A DNA stretch of 23,924 bases from positions 1 through 23,924 of IMG/VR virus record IMGVR_UViG_3300038485_000059. The stretch is one strand, 5' to 3'. This DNA comes from a virus. The notes under the pieces were generated by a model. The model ran no database searches. It was not told the origin of the DNA and worked only from the letters and a program-made list of their open reading frames with translations. Both the position numbers and the translations under genes were made by a program. Below, one piece after another: positions 4 to 23,924 of the stretch. The first letter of the stretch is position 1; each line of letters starts with the position of its first letter.

Positions 4-80
4 GAAACGCAACAACAACAAAGCAAACCTTGTTATCGAATTCGATAACAAAACAAACCCAACAGAAACGGAGCAAGATC
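4..80 (+). promoter_or_regulatory. CA-rich leader carrying palindrome copy 1
   Basis: This 5' leader contains GAAACGCAACA at 4-14, a CA-rich stretch, the 20-bp perfect palindrome TGTTATCGAATTCGATAACA at 31-50 (22 bp when the flanking T/A at 30 and 51 are counted), and the ribosome binding site GGAG about 70-73 ahead of the ATG at 81. The same order recurs at 2315-2374 before the AAA+ ATPase gene. A dimeric repressor or activator binding the palindrome is the simplest reading. As RNA it could also fold into an 8-bp stem with an AATT loop. The promoter itself would lie upstream of the window. Confidence 0.6.
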
Positions 81-1345: not shown

Positions 1346-2242
1346 ATGAATGCAATAACTGAAACACTACCAACCGTACACGCGCCAACAATATCCTCCT
1401 CAGCCCTCCGCGTGGGGCTATCTATCAGCGTACCAACCATGCGCAAGATGGATAAGAAGGCAACGCGCGATGTAATCGCACACAATCGGGCACAAACAGG
1501 TTCGGCTAACGTGAGCAAGAAACTCATCAAGAGCACAGCCCACGAGGATATGACCAAGCTAGTGGCGTCTATCCGTGCCTACCATAGAGATCAGACCGTG
1601 CCTTGGGGTGACATGGGTGACCGGCTTGTATCTAACGTGAGCCTCATCGACTACAAGAACAACATAGCGCAGCTCGAGGACGAGTTCTGGGACTTAGCGC
1701 AACAAATCCTAGACGGCTACCCGCAAGCAGTAGCACAGGCACAACTCCAACTGGGTGATATGTTCAACGAGGACGAGTACCCATCGGTCGAGGTGCTGCG
1801 GCGCAAGTTCAAGTTCTCTCTAACCTTCGAGGCAGTGCCGGACGTGGGGGATTTCAGAGTAGACATCGGTAACCAAGCGGCGGACGAGATGCGTGAGCAG
1901 TACAAACAAGTATTAGAATCCCGTATCAACGCAGTCAAACAAGACCTAACCGAGCGACTACTCGAACCGTTGCAACGCATGAGCCGTGGACTGGACTATA
2001 GAGAGGGCGAGAAACCATCGGGGTTCAGAGATACGCTAGTCGACAACGTGCTATCTATTGTCGAGCTGATGCGCACTTGTAATCTGTCCAACGATGCGCG
2101 ACTCACTGACATACAGCAACAGCTTAAGCGAACGCTGACAGGTGTAACACCTGATGGGCTGCGCCGTGACCCCAACCTGCGAGCCAAGACCAAGCAGGAT
2201 GTGGATACGATCATCAAAAACCTCCCCTCGCTAGGTTTCTAG
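1346..2242 (+). CDS. DUF3150-like protein, first gene of AAA/VWA cassette
   Basis: This 298-residue soluble protein starts at an ATG with AGGAG 8 bases upstream. It is mostly alpha-helical: a basic region at about 40-65, a long helical stretch at about 85-140, and an Arg/Glu-rich coiled region at about 180-215. The length, the helical character and above all the position directly upstream of a CobS/MoxR-type ATPase and a VWA protein fit the DUF3150 family, which is repeatedly found next to such pairs in phages and plasmids. The biochemical role of DUF3150 is unknown; a substrate adaptor or partner of the ATPase is a reasonable inference. Its isoleucine codons are mostly ATC, as in its two partners. 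I assign the family from memory of its size and context, not from a catalytic motif. Confidence 0.6.
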   Translation: MNAITETLPTVHAPTISSSALRVGLSISVPTMRKMDKKATRDVIAHNRAQTGSANVSKKLIKSTAHEDMTKLVASIRAYHRDQTVPWGDMGDRLVSNVSLIDYKNNIAQLEDEFWDLAQQILDGYPQAVAQAQLQLGDMFNEDEYPSVEVLRRKFKFSLTFEAVPDVGDFRVDIGNQAADEMREQYKQVLESRINAVKQDLTERLLEPLQRMSRGLDYREGEKPSGFRDTLVDNVLSIVELMRTCNLSNDARLTDIQQQLKRTLTGVTPDGLRRDPNLRAKTKQDVDTIIKNLPSLGF

Positions 2243-2257
2243 CGGGTGGGCGTACTA

Positions 2258-2287
2258 TTGACACAGCGGTGCGAAACCGTTGATAAT
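2258..2287 (+). promoter_or_regulatory. Sigma70-type promoter before the AAA+ ATPase gene
   Basis: TTGACA at 2258-2263 is a perfect -35 hexamer. It is followed by 18 bases and GATAAT at 2282-2287, a 5/6 match to the -10 consensus. Transcription would start near 2294, giving a leader of about 80 bases that contains palindrome copy 3. It lies in the only sizeable gap (132 bases) within the cassette, so the ATPase and VWA genes could be expressed separately from the DUF3150-like gene. Confidence 0.6.
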
Positions 2288-2314
2288 AATAACTGAAACA
2301 AAGCAAGACCGCAC

Positions 2315-2374
2315 GAAACGCAACACCAACCCAACCTGTTATCGAATTCGATAACAAACTAACGGAGCACGACA
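2315..2374 (+). promoter_or_regulatory. Leader with palindrome copy 3
   Basis: GAAACGCAACA at 2315-2325, a CA-rich stretch, the palindrome TGTTATCGAATTCGATAACA at 2337-2356 and the site CGGAGCACGACA just before the ATG at 2375 repeat the organisation seen at 4-80. The palindrome lies about 50 bases downstream of the -10 element. It could be a roadblock operator or an RNA hairpin close to the ribosome binding site. Confidence 0.6.
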
Positions 2375-3472
2375 ATGAATAACGCAACTACAGCAAGCAA
2401 CATATACGCACTGGGCATCAACCAAGTCGCCAACCTCATCGGCACCATCGGGCGGGACATCACGGTAGTAGTGCAAGGTAACATGGGGACAGGCAAGTCC
2501 TCGATCATCAACATCCTCGCTGACCGTTTCCCAAACCACAAACCTGTTTACCTAGACTGCACAACGCTAGTCGATTCGGCTGACATGTTTATGGTGAAGT
2601 ATTCAGAGGACGGCAAGACATTCAAGACCGTACCACTCGAAGACCTTGGGCTGCACCTGCCCGACCAACCTGTAATCCTAATGCTAGACGAGATCGGTAA
2701 GTGTAACCGCTCAGTTATCCTAGCCTGTAACCGCATCATGCTCGAACGTAAGCACAGCGGGTATGAGCTGCACCCTGACAGTATTGTATTCGCTACAACT
2801 AACTTAGGTGCGGAGGGTCTAGGTGACCTGCTACCTGCACATACTCGTAACCGCATCACCGTAGTTACCATGCGTAACCCTGACAACATGGAGTACATCG
2901 AGTGGGGTATCGACAACGACATCGACCCTATCATACTTGGTTTCTGTAAGGAGCACCCTGAGTTATTCCACAGCTTCGAGCAGTACGAGAACCCAGACGA
3001 GAACCCCTACATCTTTCACCCACGCAGTGCACGAGCTGCTTTCTGGACACCACGTGCTGGCGAGAAGTCTAGTGACATACTCAAAATGCGCCACTTACTA
3101 GACGACACACAGCTCACCGCTGCGCTCATTGGTACGATTGGTGACCGCACTGCGCTAGACCTAGCTGCCTTTATATCCCTAGCTGACAAGGTACCAACCC
3201 GCGATCAGATAGAGACCGACCCGATGAATGCGCCTGTACCTGACAGCCCTGCCGCTGTGTGCATGGTGGTGTATCGAGCACTGGCAACTATCGAGCGCAA
3301 GTGGGTAGATCAATGGCTGACTTACATGAACAGGTTATCCAAGGAAGCACAGGGTTTGTTTGTCAATGGCGTACGTGCACCACAGTACAGCCGACGTGAC
3401 TACGTAGTGCAGCACAAGAAGTTCCAAGACTGGTGCATGGCTAACAACTACATGTTCAGTGCTGACAAATAG
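2375..3472 (+). CDS. MoxR/CobS-type AAA+ ATPase
   Basis: This 365-residue protein begins 10 bases after a clear GGAG. It shows Walker A GNMGTGKS at 35-42, Walker B VILMLDE at 100-106 with D105 and E106, a sensor-1 asparagine at 143 (ATTN) and arginine-finger candidates R158 and R160. This pattern fits the MoxR/CobS branch of AAA+ ATPases, which work as rings with a VWA-domain partner to remodel or metallate a target (as with CobS-CobT and NorQ-NorD). The partner gene starts 11 bases downstream. CobS-like ATPases occur in many phages, but cobalamin synthesis is unlikely here because no other pathway gene is visible. Residues about 200-365 form a helical C-terminal region. Ile codons by hand count are 18 ATC, 5 ATA and 3 ATT. 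Confidence 0.85.
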   Translation: MNNATTASNIYALGINQVANLIGTIGRDITVVVQGNMGTGKSSIINILADRFPNHKPVYLDCTTLVDSADMFMVKYSEDGKTFKTVPLEDLGLHLPDQPVILMLDEIGKCNRSVILACNRIMLERKHSGYELHPDSIVFATTNLGAEGLGDLLPAHTRNRITVVTMRNPDNMEYIEWGIDNDIDPIILGFCKEHPELFHSFEQYENPDENPYIFHPRSARAAFWTPRAGEKSSDILKMRHLLDDTQLTAALIGTIGDRTALDLAAFISLADKVPTRDQIETDPMNAPVPDSPAAVCMVVYRALATIERKWVDQWLTYMNRLSKEAQGLFVNGVRAPQYSRRDYVVQHKKFQDWCMANNYMFSADK

Positions 3473-3483
3473 GAGAACGAATC

Positions 3484-4701
3484 ATGCTAGCAATCAACAC
3501 ACAACTATCCGCCGAGCAGCGGCTATCTAAGAACATCACAGCCATCATGGGCAACCCGAAGTACGTGGCGCTCGCAGGTGTACTGATGATTGGCGAGAAG
3601 GGTATCAAGGACGACTGCCCTACTGCCTACACTAACGGACGCGATGACTACTATGGTCGTGCGTTTGTCGATGGACTGGCAGACTCAGAGTTCCGGTTCC
3701 TTATCTTGCACGAGACATACCACAAGCTGTTTAAGCATCTCACTACATGGGAACACCTATATAAAGACGATGCGCAGCTAGCCAACATGGCGTGTGACTA
3801 TGTAATTAACCTGATGATCGCTGACGAGAACCGTGACATGTTTGCGGTGATGCCCAAGGACGCAGAGGGTAACGCGATAGGCTTGCTCGATGAGAAGTTC
3901 CGCAACATGGACACAGCGCAGGTCTACAAGATACTGAAACAAGAACAGGAAGAGAACGGTGGTGGTGGGGAAGGTGAGGGTGAAGGTGGTGGGCTAGACG
4001 AACACGACTGGGAAGGTGCGCAGGAGATGAGCGCAGACGAACAGCGTGAGTTAGCACAAGAGATCGACCAAGCCGTACGCCAAGGTGCGCTGACCGCAGG
4101 TAAGGTAGGTAGTGGAGGCAACCGAGCTATCGACCAACTGCTACAGCCCGAGGTTAACTGGCGCGAGGTGCTACGTGAGTTCATTACAGAAACGTGTCGA
4201 GGTAACGACGACAGCACGTGGAGACAACCTAGCAGACGACACCTAGCGATGGGCATGCTTAGACCAAGCGGTATTACAGAGCGAGTGGGCGAGCTAGTCA
4301 TTGCCATAGACACGTCGGGTAGTATCGGGCAACACGAGCTGACCAAGTGCCTGAGTGAGATCAAGGGTGTGTGCGATACAGTAAGACCCGAATCCGTTCG
4401 CATACTGTACTGGGATACCAAGGTGTGCAGTGACGAGCTATATGGTGACGTACCCAACGCATGCGCTTCTCTCGAACAACTTACACAAACAACCAAGCCC
4501 GCAGGTGGTGGAGGTACGAGGGTGCAGTGTGTGCCTGACTACATACGCGACAACAACATCAACGCACAGGCAGTAATCGTGCTGACTGATGGCTATCTAG
4601 GTGGTGACTGGGGTGCATGGACTATGCCCCTGCTGTGGGGAATCCTAGATAACAAGAGTGCCCGACCTACAATCGGCAAGACGTTACACATCAACCTATA
4701 A
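3484..4701 (+). CDS. Zincin-like plus VWA domain protein (DUF2201 type)
   Basis: This 405-residue protein starts at an ATG with GGAG upstream. The N-terminal part (about 1-150) has the zinc-protease-like motif HETYH at 76-80, followed by a helix with N101 and D105 (ANMACDYVIN), as in the putative metallopeptidase half of DUF2201 proteins. A Gly/Glu-rich linker at about 157-172 leads to a helical stretch. The C-terminal VWA-like domain has the metal-ion-dependent adhesion motif DTSGS at 276-280, followed by the expected GGGGT and LTDG motifs. VWA proteins of this type partner with MoxR/CobS ATPases, and the ATPase gene is immediately upstream. Whether the HExxH region cleaves anything is unknown. 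The product is cytoplasmic, with no signal peptide. Family assignment is firm; substrate and function are not known. Confidence 0.85.
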   Translation: MLAINTQLSAEQRLSKNITAIMGNPKYVALAGVLMIGEKGIKDDCPTAYTNGRDDYYGRAFVDGLADSEFRFLILHETYHKLFKHLTTWEHLYKDDAQLANMACDYVINLMIADENRDMFAVMPKDAEGNAIGLLDEKFRNMDTAQVYKILKQEQEENGGGGEGEGEGGGLDEHDWEGAQEMSADEQRELAQEIDQAVRQGALTAGKVGSGGNRAIDQLLQPEVNWREVLREFITETCRGNDDSTWRQPSRRHLAMGMLRPSGITERVGELVIAIDTSGSIGQHELTKCLSEIKGVCDTVRPESVRILYWDTKVCSDELYGDVPNACASLEQLTQTTKPAGGGGTRVQCVPDYIRDNNINAQAVIVLTDGYLGGDWGAWTMPLLWGILDNKSARPTIGKTLHINL

Positions 4702-4718
4702 CTAACAGGAGCAACATC

Positions 4719-5705
4719 ATGAGAAACCACATAGAAAAAACATTCGGATTTGACGCATCACTTAACCGCGCGATGGAGGACAGCTATTATTCCCCACAAA
4801 TGGCAGATGAGTTAGTCGCGTTACAGAAACGTATTAAGAAGTCTCACCCATTCGCCAAGTTCAGACACACCGCAGACGATGCGTTAGCTATACACCTTAG
4901 CCCACAAAGTATGTGCTTCGATGCCAAGGTATCGTGGGACACGGACGCCTACATAGTTATGACTGTAAGCACCCGCCGCGAACGCGAAATCTCATACGAC
5001 GACACCGATAAATACGGCATAGCCTACAGTGATAGACGTTTCACTAGCATAACCAAGACCCTAGCCCGCGCGACTAAGCTAATCAAAGATACCAAAAGCG
5101 CGACAGGTGAGCGTGTGTTAGAGAAAGTTATGCAGGGAACTATACCCCCCTTTGGGCGGGGTCTTCAGCAAGCCCAAGAGAAGCTAGACACCTTACAACG
5201 TGACGTGTTCAGCTCAATGAGAAATTCCCTAACCAGTGATGCGCTGCTCGAATACTCCTTAGCTGCTATGGAACAACGCCCAGTACGTGCCGACATACGA
5301 CACCAAATTGAGGACTGCACGACCCAATACTTGGAGCGTAAAAAAGATTTGGGTGACTCTATTGCTGCGTGCGATGGGCTACAGACTCTTTCTATATACA
5401 AGCTAAAGAACATAGACAAGGTGTTCTTTCATTACAGAGACACGACCGCAGGTGAGATGCAGCGCATCAAGCATGTAGACGATGTAAACAAGTTACCCCA
5501 AGAAGTTCTGGCTAAGCTGTCTGTGTTGCAAGCTACAGGTATAGATGCGATGGAGACCGTAGGGTATTCGTATGACACTAAGGTGCTGACTAGTATTGGC
5601 TGCGTGACCAGAGACGCATACGTCTATGACTTTGTTGAAGATGCTATGTGTGTATACATCTCGCCCGAAACAATGGCTGAGGTAGAAACTCTTGTCGGAT
5701 ACTAA
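4719..5705 (+). CDS. Unknown protein following the AAA/VWA cassette
   Basis: This 328-residue protein starts at an ATG with AGGAGCAACATC upstream, the same ribosome-binding context as the cassette genes. It appears soluble. The N-terminal third has a mixed alpha/beta look; a basic helical part lies at about 105-135, and helices at about 150-215 could form a coiled coil. It carries no catalytic motif that I can identify and I do not recognise the family. The 17-base spacing from the VWA gene and the shared ribosome binding site suggest it belongs to the same transcript and may be a fourth component. Its Ile codons are more mixed than in the trio, with ATA common. Confidence 0.7.
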   Translation: MRNHIEKTFGFDASLNRAMEDSYYSPQMADELVALQKRIKKSHPFAKFRHTADDALAIHLSPQSMCFDAKVSWDTDAYIVMTVSTRREREISYDDTDKYGIAYSDRRFTSITKTLARATKLIKDTKSATGERVLEKVMQGTIPPFGRGLQQAQEKLDTLQRDVFSSMRNSLTSDALLEYSLAAMEQRPVRADIRHQIEDCTTQYLERKKDLGDSIAACDGLQTLSIYKLKNIDKVFFHYRDTTAGEMQRIKHVDDVNKLPQEVLAKLSVLQATGIDAMETVGYSYDTKVLTSIGCVTRDAYVYDFVEDAMCVYISPETMAEVETLVGY

Positions 5706-9558: not shown

Positions 9559-11421
9559 GTGAATATAATAACGGTAGACTTCGAGACGTACTACGACAAG
9601 GCGTTTTCTCTTAGTAAGCTAACAACCGAGCAGTACGTGCGAAGCCCCGAGTTTGAGGTCATAGGACTTGCGGTTAAAGTTAACAGTGGTGAAACAGATT
9701 GGATAAGTGGGCCATTCGATGCGGTTAAAAAATACTTACACGCTAACTACGATTGGGAAGGTTCTGCTGTCCTTGCCCATAACACTATGTTTGATGGCGC
9801 TATTCTTAGTTGGCTGTTTGATATTCACCCTAAGCTATGGCTTGATACGCTGTGTATGGGCCGCGCGTTACATGGTACGGAAGTTGGTGGTTCGCTTAAG
9901 TACTTGGCTGACATGTATGAGATCGGCGAGAAAGGTAACGAAGTCTTAAACGCATTAGGTAAGCACCGCGCAGATTTTACTGAAGAAGAACTAGAACGGT
10001 ACGGTGACTACTGCATACAAGACGTTGAGCTTACCTATCAGTTGTTTGAGATATTCCTAAAAGTATTCCCGAAGAAAGAACTTAAAGTAATCGACATGAC
10101 GCTGCGTATGTTCACCGAGCCTAAGTTGGAGTTGGACGTAGGTAGGCTAGAAGATCACTTGGATACGCTGCAAGAACAAAAAGAAAAACTACTCGAAGAG
10201 TGTGGCATCGAGAAAGAAGAGCTGATGTCCAACCCTAAGTTCGCTAAGGCACTTGAGTCGCTGGGCGTTACCCCGCCAATGAAAACAAGTCTACGTACGG
10301 GTAAGGAAGCCTTTGCTTTTGCTAAGAGCGACGAGGGATTTAAAGCCCTACAGGAACATGAGGACGCGCGAGTACAAGCCCTAGTAGCTGCACGAATAGG
10401 TTTGAAGAGCACACTAGAAGAGACACGCACCGAGCGGTTTATCGACATTGGTATACGCGGGACAATGCCCGTACCGATTCGGTACTACGCTGCACACACA
10501 GGAAGGTGGGGCGGTTCCGACAAGATAAACCTACAAAACCTACCATCACGCGGTCCGAACGGCAAGGTATTGAAATCATGTATTTGCGCCCCCGAAGGCC
10601 ACACCCTGATCGAAGCTGACTCTGCGCAGATAGAGGCCCGGGTGTTAGCTTGGTTAGCAGGACAAGTTGATCTAGTTATAGCGTTCGAGAATGGTGAAGA
10701 CGTATACAAGAAGATGGCGGCTACTATCTATAATAAGAAGGTAGACGAGATAGACAGCTCACAACGCTTCATCGGTAAGACTACTATTCTAGGTGCGGGC
10801 TACGGTATGGGTGCCGCTAAGTTCCGCGACCAGTTAAAGGGTATGGGCGTCGAGGTAGACGAGGAGGAATGTAAGCGCATCATACGGGTGTACCGCAGTG
10901 CCAATGCTTCTATCTCTCAGTTGTGGCGTGATGCGCAGAACGCTTTGATGGGTATGTACCAAGGCGAACGCTACGGCATAGGTAAAGGGGGCGTACTAAA
11001 AACACTACCAGAAGTTAATGGCATACGTCTGCCGTCGGGACTCATCATGCGCTACGGTGACCTCAAAGCCGAAGAAGGTGAGATGGGGGTTCAGTTTTCG
11101 TACAAGACCCGTAGAGGGTGGATAAATATCTATGGCGGTAAGGTTATAGAGAACGTATGCCAAGGCATCGCCCGCTGTATTATGTCGGATCAAATGTTAA
11201 TGATTTCAAAGCGGTACCCTATACTTCTTACTGTCCATGACTCTGTGGTATGCTGTGTTCCAGATAGCGAAGTTGATGAGGCTGCGGCCTATGTTGACTT
11301 ATGTATGCGACACACACCCGATTGGGCAAAGGGCCTTCCGGTGCGTGGTGACGTGGAAACTGGAAAGAACTACGGAGAATGTACGGAATGGGTAAACCCA
11401 CATGGTCTTTCAGCAGCATAA
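9559..11421 (+). CDS. Family A DNA polymerase with 3'-5' exonuclease
   Basis: This 620-residue protein has a GTG start directly after the SNase stop. The N-terminal exonuclease shows VDFET (D7, E9), DTL near residue 95 and a YGDYCIQD segment near 147-154. The polymerase domain shows motif A EADSAQIEAR with D354, motif B RFIGKTTILGAGYG at 403-416 with R403, K407 and Y415, and motif C TVHDS with H560 and D561. Length and domains fit phage replicative PolA proteins that lack the 5'-3' exonuclease. The residue aligning with E. coli Phe762 is L411 (codon 10789-10791), the Leu762 variant noted as common in marine virus polymerases and associated with slower or temperate lifestyles. It would copy the phage genome with the primase-helicase and SSB-like protein encoded downstream. 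Confidence 0.95.
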   Translation: MNIITVDFETYYDKAFSLSKLTTEQYVRSPEFEVIGLAVKVNSGETDWISGPFDAVKKYLHANYDWEGSAVLAHNTMFDGAILSWLFDIHPKLWLDTLCMGRALHGTEVGGSLKYLADMYEIGEKGNEVLNALGKHRADFTEEELERYGDYCIQDVELTYQLFEIFLKVFPKKELKVIDMTLRMFTEPKLELDVGRLEDHLDTLQEQKEKLLEECGIEKEELMSNPKFAKALESLGVTPPMKTSLRTGKEAFAFAKSDEGFKALQEHEDARVQALVAARIGLKSTLEETRTERFIDIGIRGTMPVPIRYYAAHTGRWGGSDKINLQNLPSRGPNGKVLKSCICAPEGHTLIEADSAQIEARVLAWLAGQVDLVIAFENGEDVYKKMAATIYNKKVDEIDSSQRFIGKTTILGAGYGMGAAKFRDQLKGMGVEVDEEECKRIIRVYRSANASISQLWRDAQNALMGMYQGERYGIGKGGVLKTLPEVNGIRLPSGLIMRYGDLKAEEGEMGVQFSYKTRRGWINIYGGKVIENVCQGIARCIMSDQMLMISKRYPILLTVHDSVVCCVPDSEVDEAAAYVDLCMRHTPDWAKGLPVRGDVETGKNYGECTEWVNPHGLSAA

Positions 11422-13246: not shown

Positions 13247-14788
13247 ATGCAAATAATAGATAACAGGGGCCTGCTCTTGAGGCTCCGTAATCCTGCGAAA
13301 ATCACAACGGCAATACCAACAAGCAAGGCAGTAGGTGAGCACGAAGTACTAGTTAAGTGGGGTGTAGACGAAGCCCGCGTACTTAGAAACTTAAACATAA
13401 AGGACGTACCCTCACCTATTCTGGGTACTTACGATTGGCCCGGGCGCTATACACCGTTCGACCACCAAAAAACAACCGCTTCTTTTCTTACTATGAACCC
13501 ACGCGCCTTTTGCTTTAACGAGCAGGGCACAGGCAAAACAGCTTCTGCTATATGGGCGGCTGACTTCTTGATGAAGCAAGGCAAGATAAACCGCGTACTT
13601 ATTATCTGCCCCCTATCTATTATGGACTCTGCATGGCGGGCTGATTTGTTTAGCTTTGCAATGCACCGTACAGTAGACATAGCGCACGGCGCTAAGAAGA
13701 AACGCCAAGAAATAATCCACAGCGATACTGAGTTCGTCGTCATTAACTACGATGGTGTAGAGATAGTAAAAGACGATATAGCTAATGGTGGGTTTGACCT
13801 AATTATTGTAGACGAGGCAACACACTACAAGAACGCGCAGTCTAAGCGATGGAAAGTACTGGCTAGCATAATGAATGGGGACACTTGGTTGTGGATGATG
13901 ACCGGTACTCCTGCTGCACAGTCACCGGTTGACGCGTACGGACTAGCTAAACTAGTTAACCCTAAAGAAGTCCCTAGGTTCTTCGGTGCTTTCCGCGAGT
14001 TAGTAATGCACAAGGTGACGCAGTTTAAGTGGGCACCGAAACCTAACGCTACCGAGATAGTCTACAACGCCCTACAACCTGCAATACGTTTCACTAAAGA
14101 ACAATGTCTCGACCTACCAGAGATGACCTACGTGAAGCGCGAAGTAGAGTTGACGGCGCAGCAAAAGAAATACTACGAACTACTACGTAAAGAAATGATG
14201 ACCACTGCTGCGGGCGAACAAATTACTGCGGCTAACGCAGCGGTTGCCATGAACAAGCTATTGCAGATTTCATGTGGTGCGGTCTATAGCGATACTGGAG
14301 AGACGGTGGAGTTCGATGTTAAGAACCGGTACAAAGTACTGCGTGAAGTTATCGACGAGTCTAGCCAGAAAGTTCTTATCTTTGTCCCGTTCAAGCATGT
14401 CATTGGAATACTTAAAGAAAAGCTGACCAAAGAAGGTATTACCAACGACGTGATAAACGGAGATGTAAGTGCAAACAAACGCACCGCTATCTTTAAAGAG
14501 TTCCAAGAAACCGACAACCCCCGAGTACTTATTATACAACCGCAAGCTGCTGCGCATGGCGTGACTCTTACTGCGGCGAATACAATCGTATGGTGGGGAC
14601 CAACTTCTTCTCTCGAAACTTACGCGCAAGCTAATGCTCGTGTGCATCGCTCGGGACAGAAGCACCCAAGTACTGTAGTACAACTGCAAGGGTCGCCCGT
14701 TGAGAAACGCCTGTACAAAATGTTAGACGAACGAATTAATGTTCATACTAAGATGATAGATTTATACCAAGATATACTTGAACTATAA
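13247..14788 (+). CDS. SNF2-type superfamily 2 helicase/translocase
   Basis: This 513-residue protein starts at an ATG with AAGGA upstream. The SF2 motifs appear in order: FDHQ with Q74, motif I EQGTGKT at 92-98, motif II DEAT at 189-192, motif III TGTP at 219-222, and motif VI ARVHRSGQ with R465 to Q471. The RSGQ pattern with HR is typical of SNF2 proteins. The length matches compact phage SNF2 enzymes that have only the two RecA-like lobes and a short N-terminal region. They use ATP to move on dsDNA and remodel replication or recombination intermediates. Located between the polymerase and the SSB/primase genes, it probably acts in replication restart or recombination. DEAT instead of DEAH is a mild variation. 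Confidence 0.92.
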   Translation: MQIIDNRGLLLRLRNPAKITTAIPTSKAVGEHEVLVKWGVDEARVLRNLNIKDVPSPILGTYDWPGRYTPFDHQKTTASFLTMNPRAFCFNEQGTGKTASAIWAADFLMKQGKINRVLIICPLSIMDSAWRADLFSFAMHRTVDIAHGAKKKRQEIIHSDTEFVVINYDGVEIVKDDIANGGFDLIIVDEATHYKNAQSKRWKVLASIMNGDTWLWMMTGTPAAQSPVDAYGLAKLVNPKEVPRFFGAFRELVMHKVTQFKWAPKPNATEIVYNALQPAIRFTKEQCLDLPEMTYVKREVELTAQQKKYYELLRKEMMTTAAGEQITAANAAVAMNKLLQISCGAVYSDTGETVEFDVKNRYKVLREVIDESSQKVLIFVPFKHVIGILKEKLTKEGITNDVINGDVSANKRTAIFKEFQETDNPRVLIIQPQAAAHGVTLTAANTIVWWGPTSSLETYAQANARVHRSGQKHPSTVVQLQGSPVEKRLYKMLDERINVHTKMIDLYQDILEL

Positions 14789-16473: not shown

Positions 16474-19404
16474 ATGGACACCAAACAGTTTCTAAGTACT
16501 GTGTTGAGTGATGAAGGATACTACTGCGTAGCAGGTCTTAAAGACGGAAAGATGATAAGAAAGACCTATGCGTCTTTAGACTCTGTTACCGATGTCGCAA
16601 ATAATTTTGATTTAGAACAACGAGATGCGTACTTTGCACCGGCGTCTTTTACTGACGACACTAGTACCAAAGGCGAAAACATACATCATATAAAATCTCT
16701 GTTCCTAGATTTGGATTGCGGAAAAGGTAAACCCTACAGCACACAACAAGAAGCGCTACTTGCGCTCAAAGATTGGTATAAAAAACATAATATTCCCCGC
16801 CCTACTGTAGTTAATTCGGGGCGCGGTCTACACATATACTGGTCGCTTGATCGGGCGTACACCCGTGAGGAGTGGCTACCGGTTGCTATTAGCTTAAAGG
16901 CTGCGTGTCTACAGGAGGGGCTAGAGATAGACCCCGCTGTAACTGCTGACGCTGCGCGTTTGCTACGCATACCGAACACACATAACTTCAAAGACAATCC
17001 GCCTACAGAAGTTCGGGTAGTTAGTTTTGCTAAGGGGCCAGTGGTTTTGGCGGAGTTTGCCGCGAAGCTGCCCGTAGATTTGATACCAGTTCTCCCTCCC
17101 AGAGAATACTCCAGTGCCGATAAGGCCGACATGGACAACGCAAAGGGTAACGAGAATAAGTACACGTACAAGTTTGCTAACATTCTAATGAAGACTGCTC
17201 AAGGTAGTGGCTGCGCGCACATAGACAAAGCCATACGAAAACCAGATGAGCTTACCTACCCAGAGTGGACTCACGCCCTGTCTATTGCCAAACGCTGCGA
17301 TACAGACGGAGTTGTTGGGCTACCTGCAATACATTTAATATCAAAGGGCTACAGTGAGTACAGTGCTGATGAAACGGAAAAGATAGCCTCGTCGATTGAG
17401 TACCCACACCTCTGTACTACGTTCGACAGTGATTGCCCCGGCCTATGCGAAGGGTGTCCTAACAACGGTAAGATCAAAAGCCCAATCACGCTATGCCGAG
17501 AGCTTAAGCTAGCCCAAAGCGATGAAGTAGAAGTGCAGGGTTATGCGGAAGTAGAGGAAGAGTTCTACGACGAACGTGCAGAAGAGGTTGAAGCTACCGA
17601 CGCCGAAAGTGAAGACGTACAGGAAGCTAAGCCCAAGAAAGAATCTGTACTAGAAAAGATAAAGATACCCACTTACCCAGACAAGTATGTAAGACCCGAA
17701 GGTGGTGGGGTAGCAAAAGTAATGCACGACAAAGAAGGTAACCGTGAAGAAATAATAATATGCCCCGACAATCTGTACGTTAAGAAGCGTATGTTGGACA
17801 TAGACGGGCCTTGCTATGAGATAGCCCACACAAGCGATTACGAGGGGGAGCGTACGTTTATTGCCTCTCAGAAAGACCTAATGTCCACTGAATCGTTTCG
17901 GGCTACGTTGAACTCAAATGACGTATTGGTGCTACCTAGCACCCAGAAGGAACTTATGGAATATATAGGCGCTTGGATAACTAAACTCAAACCAGAAGGC
18001 CCCCCGATTAAAGTTAAGTCACAGTTCGGATGGACAGAGGGTGGTAAGTCTTTTGTTGTTGGGGATAAAGAGATATTTGCTAATCGTATAGAGCATAACC
18101 CCGCAGGATCGCGCACCGCTCAGTATGTTTCTATGTTCGATAAAAAGGGCACACTAGAACAGTGGAAGGAGCTTGCTAAGTTCTACAATCAGCCGGGGTT
18201 TGAGCAGCACCAGTACATGTTCGGGCTGTCTTTTGGGTCTCCACTCATGGAGTTTATGTCCGGCATAGCCGGTTGTATCTATAACCTTAACAGTCCAGAG
18301 ACAGGTATAGGTAAGACCACAGGTATGTGGGGCGGTGCGTCCGTATGGGGTAACCACAAGAAGTTAGTACTGATAGGTAAGGACACCCCCAACTCAGCAT
18401 GGAACCGCGCAGAAGTACTGAAGAACCTGCCGCTCTACATAGACGAGGTGTCTAACTACAAGCCGGAAGCGGCTAGTGATTTCTGTTATGCCATTAGTGA
18501 CGGCGTGCAGAAAAACCGTATGAGTAACAGAGGCGAGAACGCTGAGCGGTACAGGGGCGAACCTTGGTCTTTGAATTGTGGGGCTACTGGCAATAACAGC
18601 ATAAGAGACGTAGCAGGTCAGTACCGATCATCTCCGAAAGGGGAAGCAGGGCGTGTAACAGATTATACTGCCACTAAGCTACTGCATGGCGCTGCGGACA
18701 CGCTACGGGCGAACGATCTCAATGACCAGTTAGCCGAAAACTATGGGCATGCAGGACCGTTGTTCATACAACACGTTATTAGAAACAAAGCTGCGGTAAA
18801 AGAGTTAACGCTTCAGACTCGTACGGACTTAGTTAAAGCGTTAAATGCAGAGCCACAAGAGCGTTTCTGGATAGCGCAGGGCGCTACTGTATATGCAGGT
18901 TGCGTCGTAGCAAAAGAAATTGGCCTAATAGACTGGGACTTAGACAGACTGTGGAAGTGGATAATCAAGATGATTAAAGCCCAAAGGGCTAACCTCGTCG
19001 GTATGGACATGGATATAGAGGACATAATCTCACAGTTCTATATGGATCACGCACGCTCAATACTACGCATAACTAGCACTACTAATGCTACCGACCCAGA
19101 GCTGCAAAACATAATACCGATAAGCCTTCAGGATATGCCTAACTTTCAGTTTGTATCACGGCATGAGACTGACACCCACAAGCTCTACATACGCATCCCA
19201 CCACTTAAAAAATGGCTCGCGGATCGTAAGTATACTTTTGAAAGTGTGAAGGCGCTTATCTTTGAGAAAATGGAAGGTAAGTACACCAAGAAGCGGATGG
19301 GCGCCGGTACTAAAATGGACATAGGCGTAACACACACTTTAGAGTGCACCTTAAACATGGACCCTACTGTACAAGCGGAAGACTCTGATGAGGCTGAAGC
19401 ATAG
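16474..19404 (+). CDS. Primase-helicase: AEP primase plus DUF927-type ATPase
   Basis: This 976-residue multidomain protein starts at the ATG at 16474. The N-terminal archaeo-eukaryotic-type primase shows FLDLD with D79 and D81, the SGRGLH motif at 115-120 with H120, and RLLRIPN at 162-168. A cysteine cluster C314, C321, C325, C328, ending in CPNNGKIKSP, may bind metal or an Fe-S cluster. An acidic linker lies at about 350-385. The C-terminal DUF927-like ATPase has Walker A TGIGKTT at 610-616 and a likely Walker B YIDE with D657 and E658. Such fusions synthesise primers and unwind the fork. Placement next to the SSB-like gene and after the polymerase supports a replicative role. Confidence 0.85.
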   Translation: MDTKQFLSTVLSDEGYYCVAGLKDGKMIRKTYASLDSVTDVANNFDLEQRDAYFAPASFTDDTSTKGENIHHIKSLFLDLDCGKGKPYSTQQEALLALKDWYKKHNIPRPTVVNSGRGLHIYWSLDRAYTREEWLPVAISLKAACLQEGLEIDPAVTADAARLLRIPNTHNFKDNPPTEVRVVSFAKGPVVLAEFAAKLPVDLIPVLPPREYSSADKADMDNAKGNENKYTYKFANILMKTAQGSGCAHIDKAIRKPDELTYPEWTHALSIAKRCDTDGVVGLPAIHLISKGYSEYSADETEKIASSIEYPHLCTTFDSDCPGLCEGCPNNGKIKSPITLCRELKLAQSDEVEVQGYAEVEEEFYDERAEEVEATDAESEDVQEAKPKKESVLEKIKIPTYPDKYVRPEGGGVAKVMHDKEGNREEIIICPDNLYVKKRMLDIDGPCYEIAHTSDYEGERTFIASQKDLMSTESFRATLNSNDVLVLPSTQKELMEYIGAWITKLKPEGPPIKVKSQFGWTEGGKSFVVGDKEIFANRIEHNPAGSRTAQYVSMFDKKGTLEQWKELAKFYNQPGFEQHQYMFGLSFGSPLMEFMSGIAGCIYNLNSPETGIGKTTGMWGGASVWGNHKKLVLIGKDTPNSAWNRAEVLKNLPLYIDEVSNYKPEAASDFCYAISDGVQKNRMSNRGENAERYRGEPWSLNCGATGNNSIRDVAGQYRSSPKGEAGRVTDYTATKLLHGAADTLRANDLNDQLAENYGHAGPLFIQHVIRNKAAVKELTLQTRTDLVKALNAEPQERFWIAQGATVYAGCVVAKEIGLIDWDLDRLWKWIIKMIKAQRANLVGMDMDIEDIISQFYMDHARSILRITSTTNATDPELQNIIPISLQDMPNFQFVSRHETDTHKLYIRIPPLKKWLADRKYTFESVKALIFEKMEGKYTKKRMGAGTKMDIGVTHTLECTLNMDPTVQAEDSDEAEA

Positions 19405-19701: not shown

Positions 19702-19726
19702 AGCCCCCTACTCGGGGGCTTTTTTT
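19702..19726 (+). terminator. Rho-independent terminator ending the plus-strand block
   Basis: AGCCCCC at 19702-19708 pairs with GGGGGCT at 19714-19720 around TACTC and is followed by a T run to 19726. This is a canonical Rho-independent terminator for the plus strand. On the minus strand the hairpin is preceded by an A run and followed by mixed sequence, so it is directional. The stop codon of the convergent minus-strand gene (TAA, read from 19727 to 19725) falls within the T run, so the two transcription units meet here. Confidence 0.9.
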
Positions 19727-22700
19727 ATTCTTCACCCATATCTTCCATTCGCCGTTGGATAATCCGCTGCATTGCGCGTTGAGATGCGGTAATACCCCCA
19801 AGCTGTCTAGCGATCTCATCTGACACGCGGTGCTGGCGCACAGACCTCCCTACAGTACTGCCTTTTATGGCGTGGTATGGGTTTCTTTCGGAAAACGCGA
19901 CCATCTCTTCTATTAACTCAATAGCGCTATCTGTATCCCCCTCCTTCATCGCCATGTAGTAGTCGCGCATCATGTCGGTACGTTTGGTATTTAGCCTACG
20001 CTCAAGCCCTTTGTCTCGGGCGTTTGTCTCTAACTGCTTTGTGTAACCTGCTGGAGCCAAACCTAGAGACTGAGCAAATACATTCCACGCATTTATATCT
20101 TCCATTATGGGGTCACCGCGCAGTGTAGTAGCGCCCTCAGTACCGTAGCGTAGCGCTTTCATACCGTTGGATAACGCAGACGGTAACATTCTTTCTACAC
20201 CACGACTTACCTCACCTTCGGCTATTAAGTCGTAACCATCCTCCATACGACTAGCTATACCAAAGATAGGACCACCAATAGTTTCCATCGTACGTAGTAT
20301 CAGACTCTCCTGCTCACGGTTAGGTAGTGACCGGTACACTAGGTTAGTCATACCAATACGTGGTGCTACATCTACATCGAAGACAGCGTTAATCGCACCA
20401 GAGTACAGCCCCTCACCGAAGTAGCTAGCGGCTATGCTATCGAAGTCTTCGTCTTCTTCGTCAAGCAGTAGCGCATTGGCTAGCATTGAGACAATACCGT
20501 ACAGCGGTAAGCCTTGAACACCTGCAAACAATGCCGACGAGGCGAACAATCCAACGATCTGCTTTACTGCCTGTGCGCGCTCGTCAGGGTCTTTTGCACC
20601 TTTAAGGGCTTGCTTAGCCATTTGGAACTGAAGGTAGTACATGGATATACCGAACCGCTTGTACATCATCATCCAGTTGCCCATGTCGCTCTGGGCTACC
20701 CTAGGGGCGGTTTCGGCCATAGCTCCACTGTTTGTCATCTCGGTATCGTCAAGTGCAATCTCAGCAGCTTCTTTATAATCTTGTTCTGTTAGCTCGCCGT
20801 TCTTGGCTCGCTCAGCTAATTCAAGCTCGTAGGAAGTCATGGCCGTAACTTGGCGGTTAAACCGTTCGCCTTGGTGAAACATCCAGCCCATGTAGGCATT
20901 AGTAGCAGTCCACGCCGTATTAGCGGGGTTCTCCATATCCAAGTTTTCAGACGTAGTGGATATGTTCGACTGCCCGCGCGCTTCCATTAACTCTTTGAGC
21001 ACTTTGTATTTCTTCATCTCTGGGGACAAGTTGGGGTCGTTGAAGTCCACATTAGATAGTGACGGGCCTTCAAATACTTCCCTACCGCCCTCGTCAGTAA
21101 ACGTCTCAGTCCGGCGCTTCATGCCAGTACCCATAAATATCTTACGGGCGTTATTCATAGCCTTCATAGTATCGGTAAACCCATAGCGCCCGCCCAAGTA
21201 GGGTAGCACCACGATGGGTAAGTTAGACGCGTTGACTATTACCGATGACACGTTGAAACCTAGAGTCATACCAAAGCCAGCAGTCTTAAGTGCTTTACTC
21301 CAAGTAGCGATCTTAGGGTTACGTGCGAAGTTAATGTAGCCTTGTAGCTGTGCTTCGAGCTTTTCCGCCCCTGAGTATATTTCTGGAGTAGCTTTGTATT
21401 CGTTCTTAGCCGCAGCTATATCGTTACTAATTTTGCTTAGGTTCAGATCGTGCTTTAGGTTGACAATCTGGTTAGTGAAGTTAGGCATCCGCTCCCTAAA
21501 CACTTTAAGGGCGTCCGTCTCAAAACCTCGTGTACCTTGGCGTGGCTTAAACGCGCGTACTAAAGATCGTTCCGGCATGATGTCGAATAGCGAGTCAAGC
21601 AGTACGTCTTGTATCTTTTGATCCGCACCCTTTGCCCGTACATCAGCAAGTAAGTTAAACGCAAACTGCGCATCAACCTGCCCAAAGTTACCGGTTTTGT
21701 TGCGTGTATATACTTCTATGTTGTCCACACCTTCCATGTTTCTAAGCTGTCTTGCGGCTTCTTGTTGGGCGTATTCGGACTGGAATGCTTCTTTGTAGAC
21801 CTCAACTTGCCCGGTCTTAGGGTCGCGCGCACTGTAGAAAACCCAATGGCTGCCCTTACGGTACAGCGGGAAGTATGGCTCGATGGCTTCTTTCTTCAAA
21901 AGCTGAGTGAGTAGCTTATCTTTCAGGTTCTTACGTACATCCGCGTCTTCTATCTGGTCTAAACGAGTATTCATTGTCTGGACGAGCATCTCGTAAATCT
22001 TAGAGTACGAATCACGAAGCATACTGTAGGAGTCTTTAACAGCTTTTTGCTGCGCAGGAGTCATGCCTTTCAGCATGTCGTTCATCATATCCCACGCTTC
22101 TAGCGCCGCAGTGTCGTTTTCATACTTTGACCTAGGCTTAGTTGGGTCAACACGGGCAAGCGTACTCTCGGCAGTCCAGTTGTTAAGCGTTTCCTTAACT
22201 TGTTTGTCCTTGCCTATAATCCTTTCAACCGCATCAGCAGTATCTTTGGTCATGCTCAAGTACTTTTGACGGTCGCCGTTCTTAGTCTGGAGTAACTTAA
22301 ACAACTCTTCGGCCTTCTCAGCCATCTTCGGGTACTTCTCTTTAGCTATCTTGTACACGGCGTTAAGTGGTAGGAACTGCATTACGGCATTCTGCGCTTG
22401 CCCACCTAGAGTAGTAAATGCGGTAGCGGCAACTGCTATGTCTTCTTTGCTGATCTTACCTTTGGCGAACCTACCGGACGCATCGAGGGTGGCCTTTTCT
22501 TTGCCTTCAACAGTAGCAGAGTAGAGCTTAGCGGCGTCGCGTGACTCAGGAGCTGGAGAGATAAGTTCTGCAACGAGGGAATCAGCCTTGTCCATAGCGG
22601 ACTCGATCTTCTTGCTAGGCTGTCCACGGAGTCGGCGTAGTATATTGTTTACGATATTCTTGAACCGGCTCCACAGGCTAATCTTCTCGCCCTTAGCAGT

Positions 22701-23924
22701 AATGCGACCTAGCTTGGCTTGGAACTCTGGGTTACTAAATGCCTCTGCCACGAACTCATCTATATTGGTAGCGCCGTATGCAGTATCCAAGCGGTCTTTA
22801 ACTGACTCAAACAAGTTACGCATTTGCTGCGCAGCAGGAGTATTCTTAGCAATTTCGTGAGAGGTTACAGCGTGCATAGCCTCATGAAGTAGGACGTGGT
22901 TTCTAAGGTCTGCGTCTTGGTTAAGAGTAATAGTATCTGTTTTAGGATCGTACAGACCCGCTACTGTTTTGCCTTCGGCATTTACTAAACCGCTAGCCAT
23001 TACGACTTTAGTATTACCCAAACCCTGTTCTATAGCGGCGGCCACACGGGATACTGTTGCATCTGTACTCTTCGTAAGGTCGTTTATCGCCCCACGTAAA
23101 TCACCGGCATCCAGCTTAGCCCGAATCTGTTGGGATAGTGGCTGACTAGAAACAGCTATAGCGTCCGCAGGTAATGGTAACCCCATAGACTCGCGCATAA
23201 ACCGCACTGTGTTGGACAACTCTTTACGTGACGCGACACTTAGGTTCGCTTTAACCCACTCTTGCGCAGCTACATTTTCTTTAGTCAGACCCATAGACAT
23301 ATCGGCAGCTAGTGCGTCTATGCCTTCTTCTAAAGTCTTGCCTTTAAAGTATTTGCTTGCAGGGCTTTTAGGGTTTATAGCGGCCTCAGCGCCGACAAGA
23401 ACATTGTCCTTAGCCCTACTAGCAGACCGCTTGACTTGCGCTTCAGGAGTAGCTTGAGAAACAGCTTCTGCTTCGGCTTTAGCTACATCCGCATCTACAT
23501 CGCCTTCTTCCGCTGCCACCGCAGCAGCTTCAGCTTCCGCTGTGCCTACCGCTTCCTCTTCTACTACAGGCGCAGCTTGAGTTTCTTGTACAGCAGGAGC
23601 AGGAGCAGGGGCAGCAACAGGTTCGGCTTCAGGCTCTACTCGACGTTGCGCTACGGCAGCCTGTAGGGCTGCACCCATAGCTGTAGGAGTACCTTCCGGC
23701 AATTCGGCAGCGCGTTGTACCGCTTCTTGTTGAGCAGCAGTTTGTTTGGCTTGCAGGGCTGCTTTTAGGTCAGCTTGTTTTTGCTGCTCCGCTAGCTGTG
23801 CTTCTCTTCCTGCATACGCTACGTCTTCCTCTTGCCGCCTTGCACCTTCCTCTAAAGTCATTTGCTGGGGTGCTACACCCTCTTCAACAGTATAAGCAGC
23901 CTCTTCAGCGACTTGTTTAGCGTA
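19725..23924 (-). CDS. Giant virion-type protein with zincin motif and PLxRFG-like region (5' end outside window)
   Basis: The frame is open from its stop at 19725 to the window edge, giving about 1399 residues with no start; the ATG at 23861 is internal or only a candidate. Counting from that ATG: residues 1-150 are an Ala/Glu/Gln-rich low-complexity region; HEAMH at 326-330 with E373 in EFVAEAF forms a zincin-like protease motif; YFPLYRKG near 664-670 resembles the PLxRFG motif of giant phage proteins (with RKG in place of RFG); and the C-terminal part has hydrophobic stretches (SSALFAGVQGLPLYGIVSML) followed by long helices. Such large polyvalent proteins are usually carried in the virion and delivered into the host. 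It is the only minus-strand gene here and likely borders the structural module. Confidence 0.75.
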   Translation of the reverse strand, partial: YAKQVAEEAAYTVEEGVAPQQMTLEEGARRQEEDVAYAGREAQLAEQQKQADLKAALQAKQTAAQQEAVQRAAELPEGTPTAMGAALQAAVAQRRVEPEAEPVAAPAPAPAVQETQAAPVVEEEAVGTAEAEAAAVAAEEGDVDADVAKAEAEAVSQATPEAQVKRSASRAKDNVLVGAEAAINPKSPASKYFKGKTLEEGIDALAADMSMGLTKENVAAQEWVKANLSVASRKELSNTVRFMRESMGLPLPADAIAVSSQPLSQQIRAKLDAGDLRGAINDLTKSTDATVSRVAAAIEQGLGNTKVVMASGLVNAEGKTVAGLYDPKTDTITLNQDADLRNHVLLHEAMHAVTSHEIAKNTPAAQQMRNLFESVKDRLDTAYGATNIDEFVAEAFSNPEFQAKLGRITAKGEKISLWSRFKNIVNNILRRLRGQPSKKIESAMDKADSLVAELISPAPESRDAAKLYSATVEGKEKATLDASGRFAKGKISKEDIAVAATAFTTLGGQAQNAVMQFLPLNAVYKIAKEKYPKMAEKAEELFKLLQTKNGDRQKYLSMTKDTADAVERIIGKDKQVKETLNNWTAESTLARVDPTKPRSKYENDTAALEAWDMMNDMLKGMTPAQQKAVKDSYSMLRDSYSKIYEMLVQTMNTRLDQIEDADVRKNLKDKLLTQLLKKEAIEPYFPLYRKGSHWVFYSARDPKTGQVEVYKEAFQSEYAQQEAARQLRNMEGVDNIEVYTRNKTGNFGQVDAQFAFNLLADVRAKGADQKIQDVLLDSLFDIMPERSLVRAFKPRQGTRGFETDALKVFRERMPNFTNQIVNLKHDLNLSKISNDIAAAKNEYKATPEIYSGAEKLEAQLQGYINFARNPKIATWSKALKTAGFGMTLGFNVSSVIVNASNLPIVVLPYLGGRYGFTDTMKAMNNARKIFMGTGMKRRTETFTDEGGREVFEGPSLSNVDFNDPNLSPEMKKYKVLKELMEARGQSNISTTSENLDMENPANTAWTATNAYMGWMFHQGERFNRQVTAMTSYELELAERAKNGELTEQDYKEAAEIALDDTEMTNSGAMAETAPRVAQSDMGNWMMMYKRFGISMYYLQFQMAKQALKGAKDPDERAQAVKQIVGLFASSALFAGVQGLPLYGIVSMLANALLLDEEDEDFDSIAASYFGEGLYSGAINAVFDVDVAPRIGMTNLVYRSLPNREQESLILRTMETIGGPIFGIASRMEDGYDLIAEGEVSRGVERMLPSALSNGMKALRYGTEGATTLRGDPIMEDINAWNVFAQSLGLAPAGYTKQLETNARDKGLERRLNTKRTDMMRDYYMAMKEGDTDSAIELIEEMVAFSERNPYHAIKGSTVGRSVRQHRVSDEIARQLGGITASQRAMQRIIQRRMEDMGEE

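What the first reader, a model, noticed from the sequence alone, without database searches (positions are those of the whole stretch)
1346..4701. DUF3150 / MoxR-like ATPase / zincin-VWA cassette of unknown purpose in a phage
An intact AAA+ ATPase (Walker A, Walker B, sensor and Arg-finger candidates) is followed by a protein with both HExxH and MIDAS motifs, and preceded by a DUF3150-like protein. In bacteria such ATPase-VWA pairs activate or metallate a specific enzyme. Here no target gene is visible, so the target may be a host complex. The trio is expensive coding (over 3 kb) and placed under its own promoter and palindrome, so it is probably important early. This is the best candidate in the window for an undescribed system.
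Basis: partly seen in the sequence, partly recalled or inferred. Interest (0 to 1): 0.75.

Follow-up and report, generated by a model that had tools for sequence, protein, structure and literature searches.

The report
Phage MoxR/VWA-metallopeptidase module with DUF3150
The phage carries a real and widely shared molecular machine, an ATP-driven motor plus a gripping, metal-dependent protease-like partner, which on mobile DNA often comes with a third protein (DUF3150) that looks like an interchangeable target-recognition part; what it acts on is unknown, but it usually sits among DNA-replication genes.

Summary
The trio is real. Window 2375-3472 is an intact MoxR/AAA_5 ATPase. 3484-4701 is a DUF2201 protein (zincin HExxH plus complete MIDAS VWA). 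1346-2242 is a divergent DUF3150 homologue.

The ATPase-VWA pair is the stable unit, found in phage N4 (gp24/gp25, core and middle-expressed), other phages, plasmids and bacterial chromosomes. DUF3150 is optional and occurs in three gene orders, but 47/47 DUF3150-anchored viral loci with adequate flanks carry both partners.

Canonical DUF3150 in gammaproteobacterial elements and IncC plasmids accompanies a different pair (CobS-like ATPase, CobT-like VWA). Chromosomal pairs often carry an LRV/HEAT solenoid instead (35/62). DUF3150's N-terminal three quarters is swapped between near-identical phages while its C-terminus is kept.

I infer a Midasin/NorQD-like remodelling machine with a probable protease, and DUF3150 as the plug-in target-recognition subunit. 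It probably acts on replication/recombination complexes, because its viral neighbours are mostly DNA polymerases, helicases and primases.

The pair was already reported in jumbo phages, with a virion-assembly proposal. No paper in the searched library names DUF3150. The promoter and palindrome lie inside the trio; the palindrome is a separate, clade-wide, sequence-diversifying repeat.

The parts
1346..2242 (+). DUF3150 homologue (298 aa): proposed target-recognition/adaptor subunit; N-terminal ~220 aa allele-variable, C-terminal ~75 aa (ending IIKNLPSLGF) conserved
2375..3472 (+). MoxR/AAA_5 ATPase (365 aa), related to Midasin AAA modules (profile E 6e-40); relative of N4 gp24
2477..2500 (+). 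Walker A GNMGTGKS (aa 35-42)
3484..4701 (+). DUF2201_N zincin + DUF2201 VWA protein (405 aa); relative of N4 gp25; VWA fold matches the MDN1/Rea1 MIDAS domain
3709..3723 (+). HExxH (HETYH, aa 76-80), invariant in 107 homologues
4309..4323 (+). MIDAS DTSGS (aa 276-280); T345 (4516-4518) and D369 (4588-4590) complete it
2258..2287 (+). sigma70-like promoter match TTGACA-18-GATAAT (11 of 12), between the DUF3150 and ATPase genes; consensus match only
2337..2356 (+). perfect 20-bp palindrome TGTTATCGAATTCGATAACA, 18 nt upstream of the ATPase start codon; further copies at 31-50 and 676-695
4719..5705 (+). ORF4 (328 aa), next gene downstream, no known family; present only in close relatives and allele-variable; membership in the system not shown
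9559..11421 (+). family A DNA polymerase, part of the replication cluster (with SNF2 13247-14788 and DUF927 primase/helicase 16474-19404) that follows the trio on the same strand; context only

Best explanation
The ATPase and the zincin-VWA protein form a MoxR/VWA remodelling machine that works like Midasin or NorQD. A hexameric AAA+ ring is plugged by the VWA domain. The MIDAS metal grips an acidic handle on a target complex. ATP hydrolysis strains or dislodges the target. The HExxH domain, which those machines lack, probably clips the target or an inhibitor. DUF3150 is the mobile-element version of an interchangeable third subunit that selects the target: its C-terminus docks on the conserved machine and its variable N-terminus recognises the target. 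The most likely targets are replication/recombination nucleoprotein complexes on the element's own DNA, such as recycling of stalled or terminated replisomes or removal of host proteins from phage DNA, early to middle in infection. Shown here: motif integrity and invariance, homology, co-occurrence, interchangeability of the third gene, allele swapping, genomic context. Inferred: complex formation, docking and specificity roles, proteolysis, target.
For: Motor and MIDAS/zincin residues invariant across phages, plasmids and chromosomes. ATPase profile best matches Midasin (E 6e-40). VWA model matches MDN1-MIDAS/NLE1-UBL (E 7e-5) and weakly NorQD (E 1e-2); VWA profile hits the minimal metallopeptidase MJ1213 over the HExxH region (E 2e-3). 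DUF3150 in viruses occurs with the pair in 47/47 loci with adequate flanks. Canonical DUF3150 in nine gammaproteobacterial genomes sits beside a CobT-like VWA in 9/9 and a CobS-like AAA_5 ATPase in 8/9, so one third subunit serves two kinds of AAA+/VWA pair. Conversely the pair takes other third genes: LRV/HEAT solenoid in 35/62 chromosomal loci and 0/143 viral loci, or an unrelated ~220-aa protein between ATPase and VWA in 17 phages. DUF3150 N-terminus exchanged (44-57% versus 77-88% identity) in phages whose ATPase/VWA/polymerase are mostly 80-95% identical, C-terminus kept. Context: among 78 long neighbours in distant viral contigs, 13 DNA polymerases plus helicases, primases and a processivity factor dominate over virion proteins; window trio precedes PolA/SNF2/DUF927; IncC DUF3150-VWA follows ssb-bet-exo; pSYSA pair lies near the plasmid replication gene. 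N4 gp24/25 are middle transcripts (PMC4193335).
Against: No biochemical or genetic evidence; no complex was modelled (only single chains could be predicted). Neighbours were the two longest ORFs within 5.5 kb, with no matched control. Allele swapping of DUF3150 could reflect its position at the edge of a mosaic early region rather than specificity. Proximity to replication genes is weak evidence for a target. In roseophage RPP1 a second structural module lies next to the gp24/25 homologues (PMC4193335). SXT genes in the equivalent region (s067, s068, s070; my mapping is by position only) reduce transfer 10-fold or less when deleted (PMC2791158), so they are not essential there.
Confidence: 0.42

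Rival explanations
1. Virion assembly and processing machine: the ATPase-VWA pair is a chaperone for head or tail proteins and the zincin trims structural precursors, as proposed for group 2.2 jumbo phages and by analogy with ATV tail development.
For: Explicit proposal in PMC7824862; a second structural module lies near the gp24/25 homologues in roseophage RPP1 (PMC4193335); a few structural proteins among the neighbours.
Against: The pair also occurs on plasmids without virions (Cupriavidus, Burkholderia, pSYSA) and on bacterial chromosomes; N4 gp24/25 are middle, not late, transcripts; in the window the giant virion-like protein lies on the opposite strand (19725-23924) while the trio runs with the replication genes.
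Confidence: 0.2
2. Host takeover or counter-defence: the machine remodels or cleaves a host complex (RNA polymerase, nucleoid protein, defence complex) and DUF3150 alleles track different host targets.
For: Bimodal DUF3150 alleles in otherwise similar phages; early-cluster position; wide occurrence on phages and conjugative elements.
Against: No PADLOC or anti-defence match; chromosomal pairs in free-living bacteria are not explained by host takeover; no host target identified.
Confidence: 0.2
3. Chelatase or metal-insertion maturation factor (CobST, NorQD or CbbQO type) for a phage or host metalloenzyme.
For: Same AAA+/VWA architecture; fold similarity to NorD; canonical DUF3150 partners carry CbbQ_C and CobT domains.
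Against: No chelatase large subunit or candidate metalloenzyme in the window; the zincin domain is not part of those systems; the target gene is not shared between contexts.
Confidence: 0.08
4. No single system: DUF3150 is a neighbour that travels with the pair but acts independently.
For: Variable order and absence of DUF3150; it diverges independently of the pair.
Against: DUF3150 found with an AAA+/VWA pair in 47/47 viral loci with adequate flanks, nine gammaproteobacterial loci and Burkholderiaceae plasmids.
Confidence: 0.1

Closest known systems
Phage N4 gp24 (ATPase) / gp25 (vWFA, annotated 'HNH endonuclease'), core of N4-like phages
   Same: Homologous ATPase and zincin-VWA pair, same order, in a middle/replication region (PMC4193335, PMC7650795)
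   Different: No DUF3150 next to the pair; 20-24% identity
MoxR + metallopeptidase-vWA pair of group 2.2 jumbo phages (PMC7824862)
   Same: Same domain architecture (MoxR ATPase, VWA with N-terminal metallopeptidase)
   Different: DUF3150 not mentioned; the published proposal is virion assembly
IncC plasmid and gammaproteobacterial CobS-like ATPase / DUF3150 / CobT-like VWA region
   Same: AAA_5 ATPase + DUF3150 + VWA protein on a mobile element, near ssb-bet-exo in IncC
   Different: ATPase is CbbQ/CobS-type and the VWA protein CobT-type without DUF2201_N; DUF3150 only distantly related (hhalign 97.4%)
Cupriavidus/Burkholderia plasmid ATPase-DUF3150-VWA (pRK1-1 and relatives)
   Same: Same three families in tandem; DUF3150 25% identical to the window's
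   Different: Gene order ATPase-DUF3150-VWA
NorQ/NorD, CbbQ/CbbO, RavA/ViaA; Midasin (Rea1/MDN1)
   Same: AAA+ motor with a VWA-MIDAS partner; VWA model matches the MDN1 MIDAS domain, ATPase profile matches Midasin
   Different: Those lack a zincin domain and DUF3150 and have known host-enzyme or ribosome-assembly targets

Membership tests
MoxR / AAA_5 AAA+ ATPases | AAA_5 domain with Walker A, Walker B, sensor 1, Arg finger, sensor 2 | tested here: met
   PF07728 29.9 bits against cut-off 22; invariant K41, D105, N143, R160, R227
MoxR / AAA_5 AAA+ ATPases | Hexamer formation and ATPase activity | not testable with these tools
   Needs purified protein
DUF2201 metallopeptidase-VWA (PF13203/PF09967) | N-terminal zincin with HExxH and C-terminal VWA with complete MIDAS | tested here: met
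   Both Pfam models above cut-off; all motif residues invariant in 107 sequences
DUF2201 metallopeptidase-VWA (PF13203/PF09967) | Peptidase activity | not testable with these tools
   No activity data; the third zinc ligand (perhaps D105) is inferred
DUF3150 (PF11348) | Match above the Pfam gathering score | tested here: not met
   18.9 against 24.9 bits
DUF3150 (PF11348) | Homology to bona fide members by profile comparison, and same gene context | tested here: met
   hhalign 97.4%, E 1.5e-11 over 194 columns; ATPase/VWA context. I therefore call it a divergent homologue, not a Pfam-defined member
Cobalt/magnesium chelatase (CobNST, ChlHID) | Large chelatase subunit CobN/ChlH beside the AAA+/VWA pair | tested here: not met
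   No such gene among the window ORFs or families found; the record is partial
NorQD/CbbQO-type activators | Cognate target enzyme gene adjacent (NOR, Rubisco) | tested here: not met
   Window genes are replication genes
vWA-MoxR ternary conflict systems (PMC7159879) and known defence systems | bpMoxR domain or PADLOC defence model match | tested here: not met
   No bpMoxR hit for the window ATPase; only marginal PADLOC hits (E 1e-3)

The most novel reading that the evidence does not exclude
A previously unrecognised modular machine of mobile genetic elements: a conserved AAA+ motor plus zincin-MIDAS gripper that accepts plug-in third subunits (DUF3150 on phages and plasmids, LRV/HEAT solenoids on chromosomes, a ~220-aa family in other phages) and uses them to select protein complexes on element DNA for forced disassembly and cleavage.
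Probability: 0.35. Interest if true: 0.75.

Novelty: new variant of a known kind. Interest (0 to 1): 0.55.

Why it matters
N4 gp24/gp25 are core genes of a large phage family without an assigned function, and canonical DUF3150 is on more than a thousand sequenced plasmids, many conjugative, without a study in the searched library. The comparison gives a directly testable model (conserved motor and gripper, swappable recogniser) and a tractable place to test it (phage N4 in E. coli K-12). It also flags a misleading database label: the zincin-VWA family is called 'HNH endonuclease' in PHROGs and RefSeq.

Tried and rejected
Near-identical DNA in the phage collection: none. PF11348 in ten genomes holding chromosomal pairs: none. 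DUF3150 fold against PDB: no match below E 0.3, so the fold gives no functional hint. PADLOC and NCBIfam: nothing informative. IncC DUF3150 as a viral query: no relatives. Idea that DUF3150 carries an SSB-like acidic C-terminal tip: many C-termini end in F/W (41% against 8% background), but distant viral members do not, so it was dropped as a general feature. A strict LRV repeat regex undercounted and was replaced by phmmer.
Full report
1. Observation. The window (a 23.9-kb virus record with no larger assembly held) contains the three ORFs at the stated positions. The middle ORF is a MoxR-type AAA_5 ATPase with every catalytic motif. The third is a DUF2201 protein with an HExxH zincin domain and a VWA domain with a complete MIDAS. 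In 107 homologues from phages and bacterial chromosomes, H76, E77, H80, H85, N101, D105, N109 (zincin side) and D276, S278, S280, T345, D369 (MIDAS) are invariant. The first ORF falls below Pfam's cut-off for DUF3150, but its family profile aligns with bona fide DUF3150 proteins at 97.4% probability, E 1.5e-11, and its confident model (pLDDT 91.8) matches phage DUF3150 models at E 4e-20. So the families were named correctly. The layout was not: the promoter-like site and palindrome lie between DUF3150 and the ATPase.

2. Distribution. I collected 148 loci of the same phage clade, 82 more distant viral loci (two of them N4-type), 80 chromosomal loci and named phages and plasmids and scored them with profile HMMs. 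In the clade, DUF3150 is near the pair in 114 of 148 loci, 31 contigs are cut off beside the pair, and three lack it although their upstream flank is long (one of these is cut off downstream). Orders: DUF3150-ATPase-VWA 97, ATPase-VWA-DUF3150 12, ATPase-DUF3150-VWA 4, and one VWA-DUF3150 on a truncated contig. In the distant viral set DUF3150 is present in 32 of 82. In the chromosomal set, chosen by similarity to a cyanobacterial plasmid VWA protein and therefore biased, it is in none, while 65 of 80 show the ATPase-VWA pair. Phage N4 (gp24/gp25), a Rhizobium phage, a Thermus phage and plasmid pSYSA also have the pair alone. Anchoring instead on DUF3150, all 47 viral loci with at least 3 kb on both sides contain both ATPase and VWA. 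So the pair does not need DUF3150, but DUF3150 goes with the pair.

3. A second kind of partner. Canonical PF11348 proteins occur in 9 of 369 sampled gammaproteobacterial-class genomes and on 1147 plasmid records, including IncC, where the order is AAA_5 ATPase, hypothetical, ssb, bet, exo, DUF3150, VWA. There the VWA protein is CobT-like (9 of 9 genomes) and the ATPase CobS/CbbQ-like (8 of 9). DUF3150 is thus a recurrent third partner of two different AAA+/VWA pairs on mobile elements. In Burkholderiaceae plasmids it accompanies the DUF2201-type pair.

4. Other third partners. In chromosomal loci, a LRV/HEAT-repeat solenoid protein lies on the same strand within 5 kb of the VWA gene in 35 of 62 loci with enough upstream sequence, against 0 of 65 distant viral and 0 of 78 clade loci. 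In 17 distant phages without DUF3150 an unrelated ~220-aa protein sits between ATPase and VWA (hhalign probability against DUF3150 2.9%). Related chromosomal loci are not independent, so these counts are not independent events.

5. Allele exchange. Among phages whose VWA proteins are 83-100% identical to the window's, DUF3150 is either 77-88% or 44-57% identical. DNA identity is about 50-65% over the first ~700 bases of the gene and up to 95% over the last ~150 in L004, which points to recombination that replaces the N-terminal part. ORF4 (4719-5705) shows a similar but independent bimodality. This fits a recogniser with a fixed docking end, but DUF3150 also borders a mosaic early region, so the inference is moderate.

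6. Mechanism. The ATPase profile's best solved relative is Midasin (E 6e-40); the VWA model's best match is the MDN1 MIDAS domain bound to the NLE1 UBL domain (E 7e-5), with NorQD further down (E 1e-2). In NorQD the VWA domain inserts a finger into the AAA+ pore (PMC13036017) and the MIDAS site is implicated in gripping the target rather than the ATPase (PMC9976466). By analogy I propose an AAA+ ring with a VWA plug, MIDAS gripping the target, and the zincin domain cutting. Cutting, docking and the target are inferences.

7. Target. Among 78 long neighbours of pairs in distant viral contigs, DNA polymerases (13), replicative helicases and primases dominate over virion proteins (longest neighbours only, no matched control). 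In the window clade the trio precedes PolA, SNF2 and the DUF927 primase-helicase. N4 gp24/25 are middle transcripts (PMC4193335). In IncC, DUF3150 follows ssb-bet-exo. I therefore favour a replication/recombination target over virion assembly, the published proposal for jumbo phages (PMC7824862). Plasmid and chromosomal occurrence argues against a purely virion role, while the structural module beside gp24/25 homologues in roseophage RPP1 (PMC4193335) keeps it alive. SXT deletions of s067, s068 and s070, which I map to this region only by position, cost 10-fold or less in transfer (PMC2791158).

8. Novelty. The pair is known, the DUF3150 family is named but unstudied in the searched library, and the swap of third subunits and DUF3150 alleles appears to be new here. 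I class it as a new variant of a known kind.

9. A by-product. The palindrome 2337-2356 is one of three identical perfect 20-mers in the window (0 expected). Across the clade, 66 of 120 loci carry at least two identical inverted repeats (arms of 8 or more), often with a different sequence in different lineages, against 0 of 120 shuffled loci, 4 of 64 chromosomal and 2 of 73 distant viral loci. Copies often lie 15-40 nt before start codons, including that of the ATPase. This looks like a diversifying operator or 5' UTR hairpin and deserves its own study.

Noticed in passing
window 31-50, 676-695, 2337-2356; relatives L009, L014, L015, L037, L062, L091, L100, L103, L113, L136 and others: Each lineage of this phage clade carries its own repeated 18-22 bp dyad (window TGTTATCGAATTCGATAACA x3; L062 GTTAGGGAATTCCCTAAC x10), often just upstream of start codons; 66 of 120 clade loci have at least 2 identical copies, 0 of 120 shuffled, 4 of 64 chromosomal loci. 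Possible diversifying operator or 5' UTR hairpin; regulator unknown.
   Followed up: partly
L158-L237 (chromosomal loci): Chromosomal MoxR/DUF2201 pairs often have an LRV/HEAT-repeat solenoid gene beside them (35 of 62 loci), absent from all viral loci tested.
   Followed up: partly
L242, L244, L245, L248, L255, L262, L266, L277, L280, L281, L283 and others: A ~220-aa protein family unrelated to DUF3150 sits between ATPase and VWA in 17 phages, in the position DUF3150 takes elsewhere.
   Followed up: partly
window 4719-5705: ORF4, no known family, present only in close relatives and bimodally diverged (40-55% or 81-92%), independent of the DUF3150 allele class.
   Followed up: no
window 19725-23924 (- strand): Giant protein (cut by the record end) with an HExxH motif (HEAMH) whose C-terminal part matches 'DarB-like antirestriction' mega-proteins of other phages (PHROG 10089).
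   Followed up: no
PHROG 1314; RefSeq records of N4 gp25 and relatives: The zincin-VWA family is labelled 'HNH endonuclease'; the window member matches DUF2201 metallopeptidase/VWA models and no HNH model, so the label is probably wrong.
   Followed up: partly
L089 3667-6981 (Burkholderia cenocepacia pBcp895-1): DUF3150 gene interrupted by an IS21-family element while the flanking ATPase and VWA genes are intact.
   Followed up: no
window 2150-2242: C-terminal tail LPSL(G/D)(F/I/L/M/W) of DUF3150 is conserved in much of the phage clade; a possible docking peptide.
   Followed up: partly
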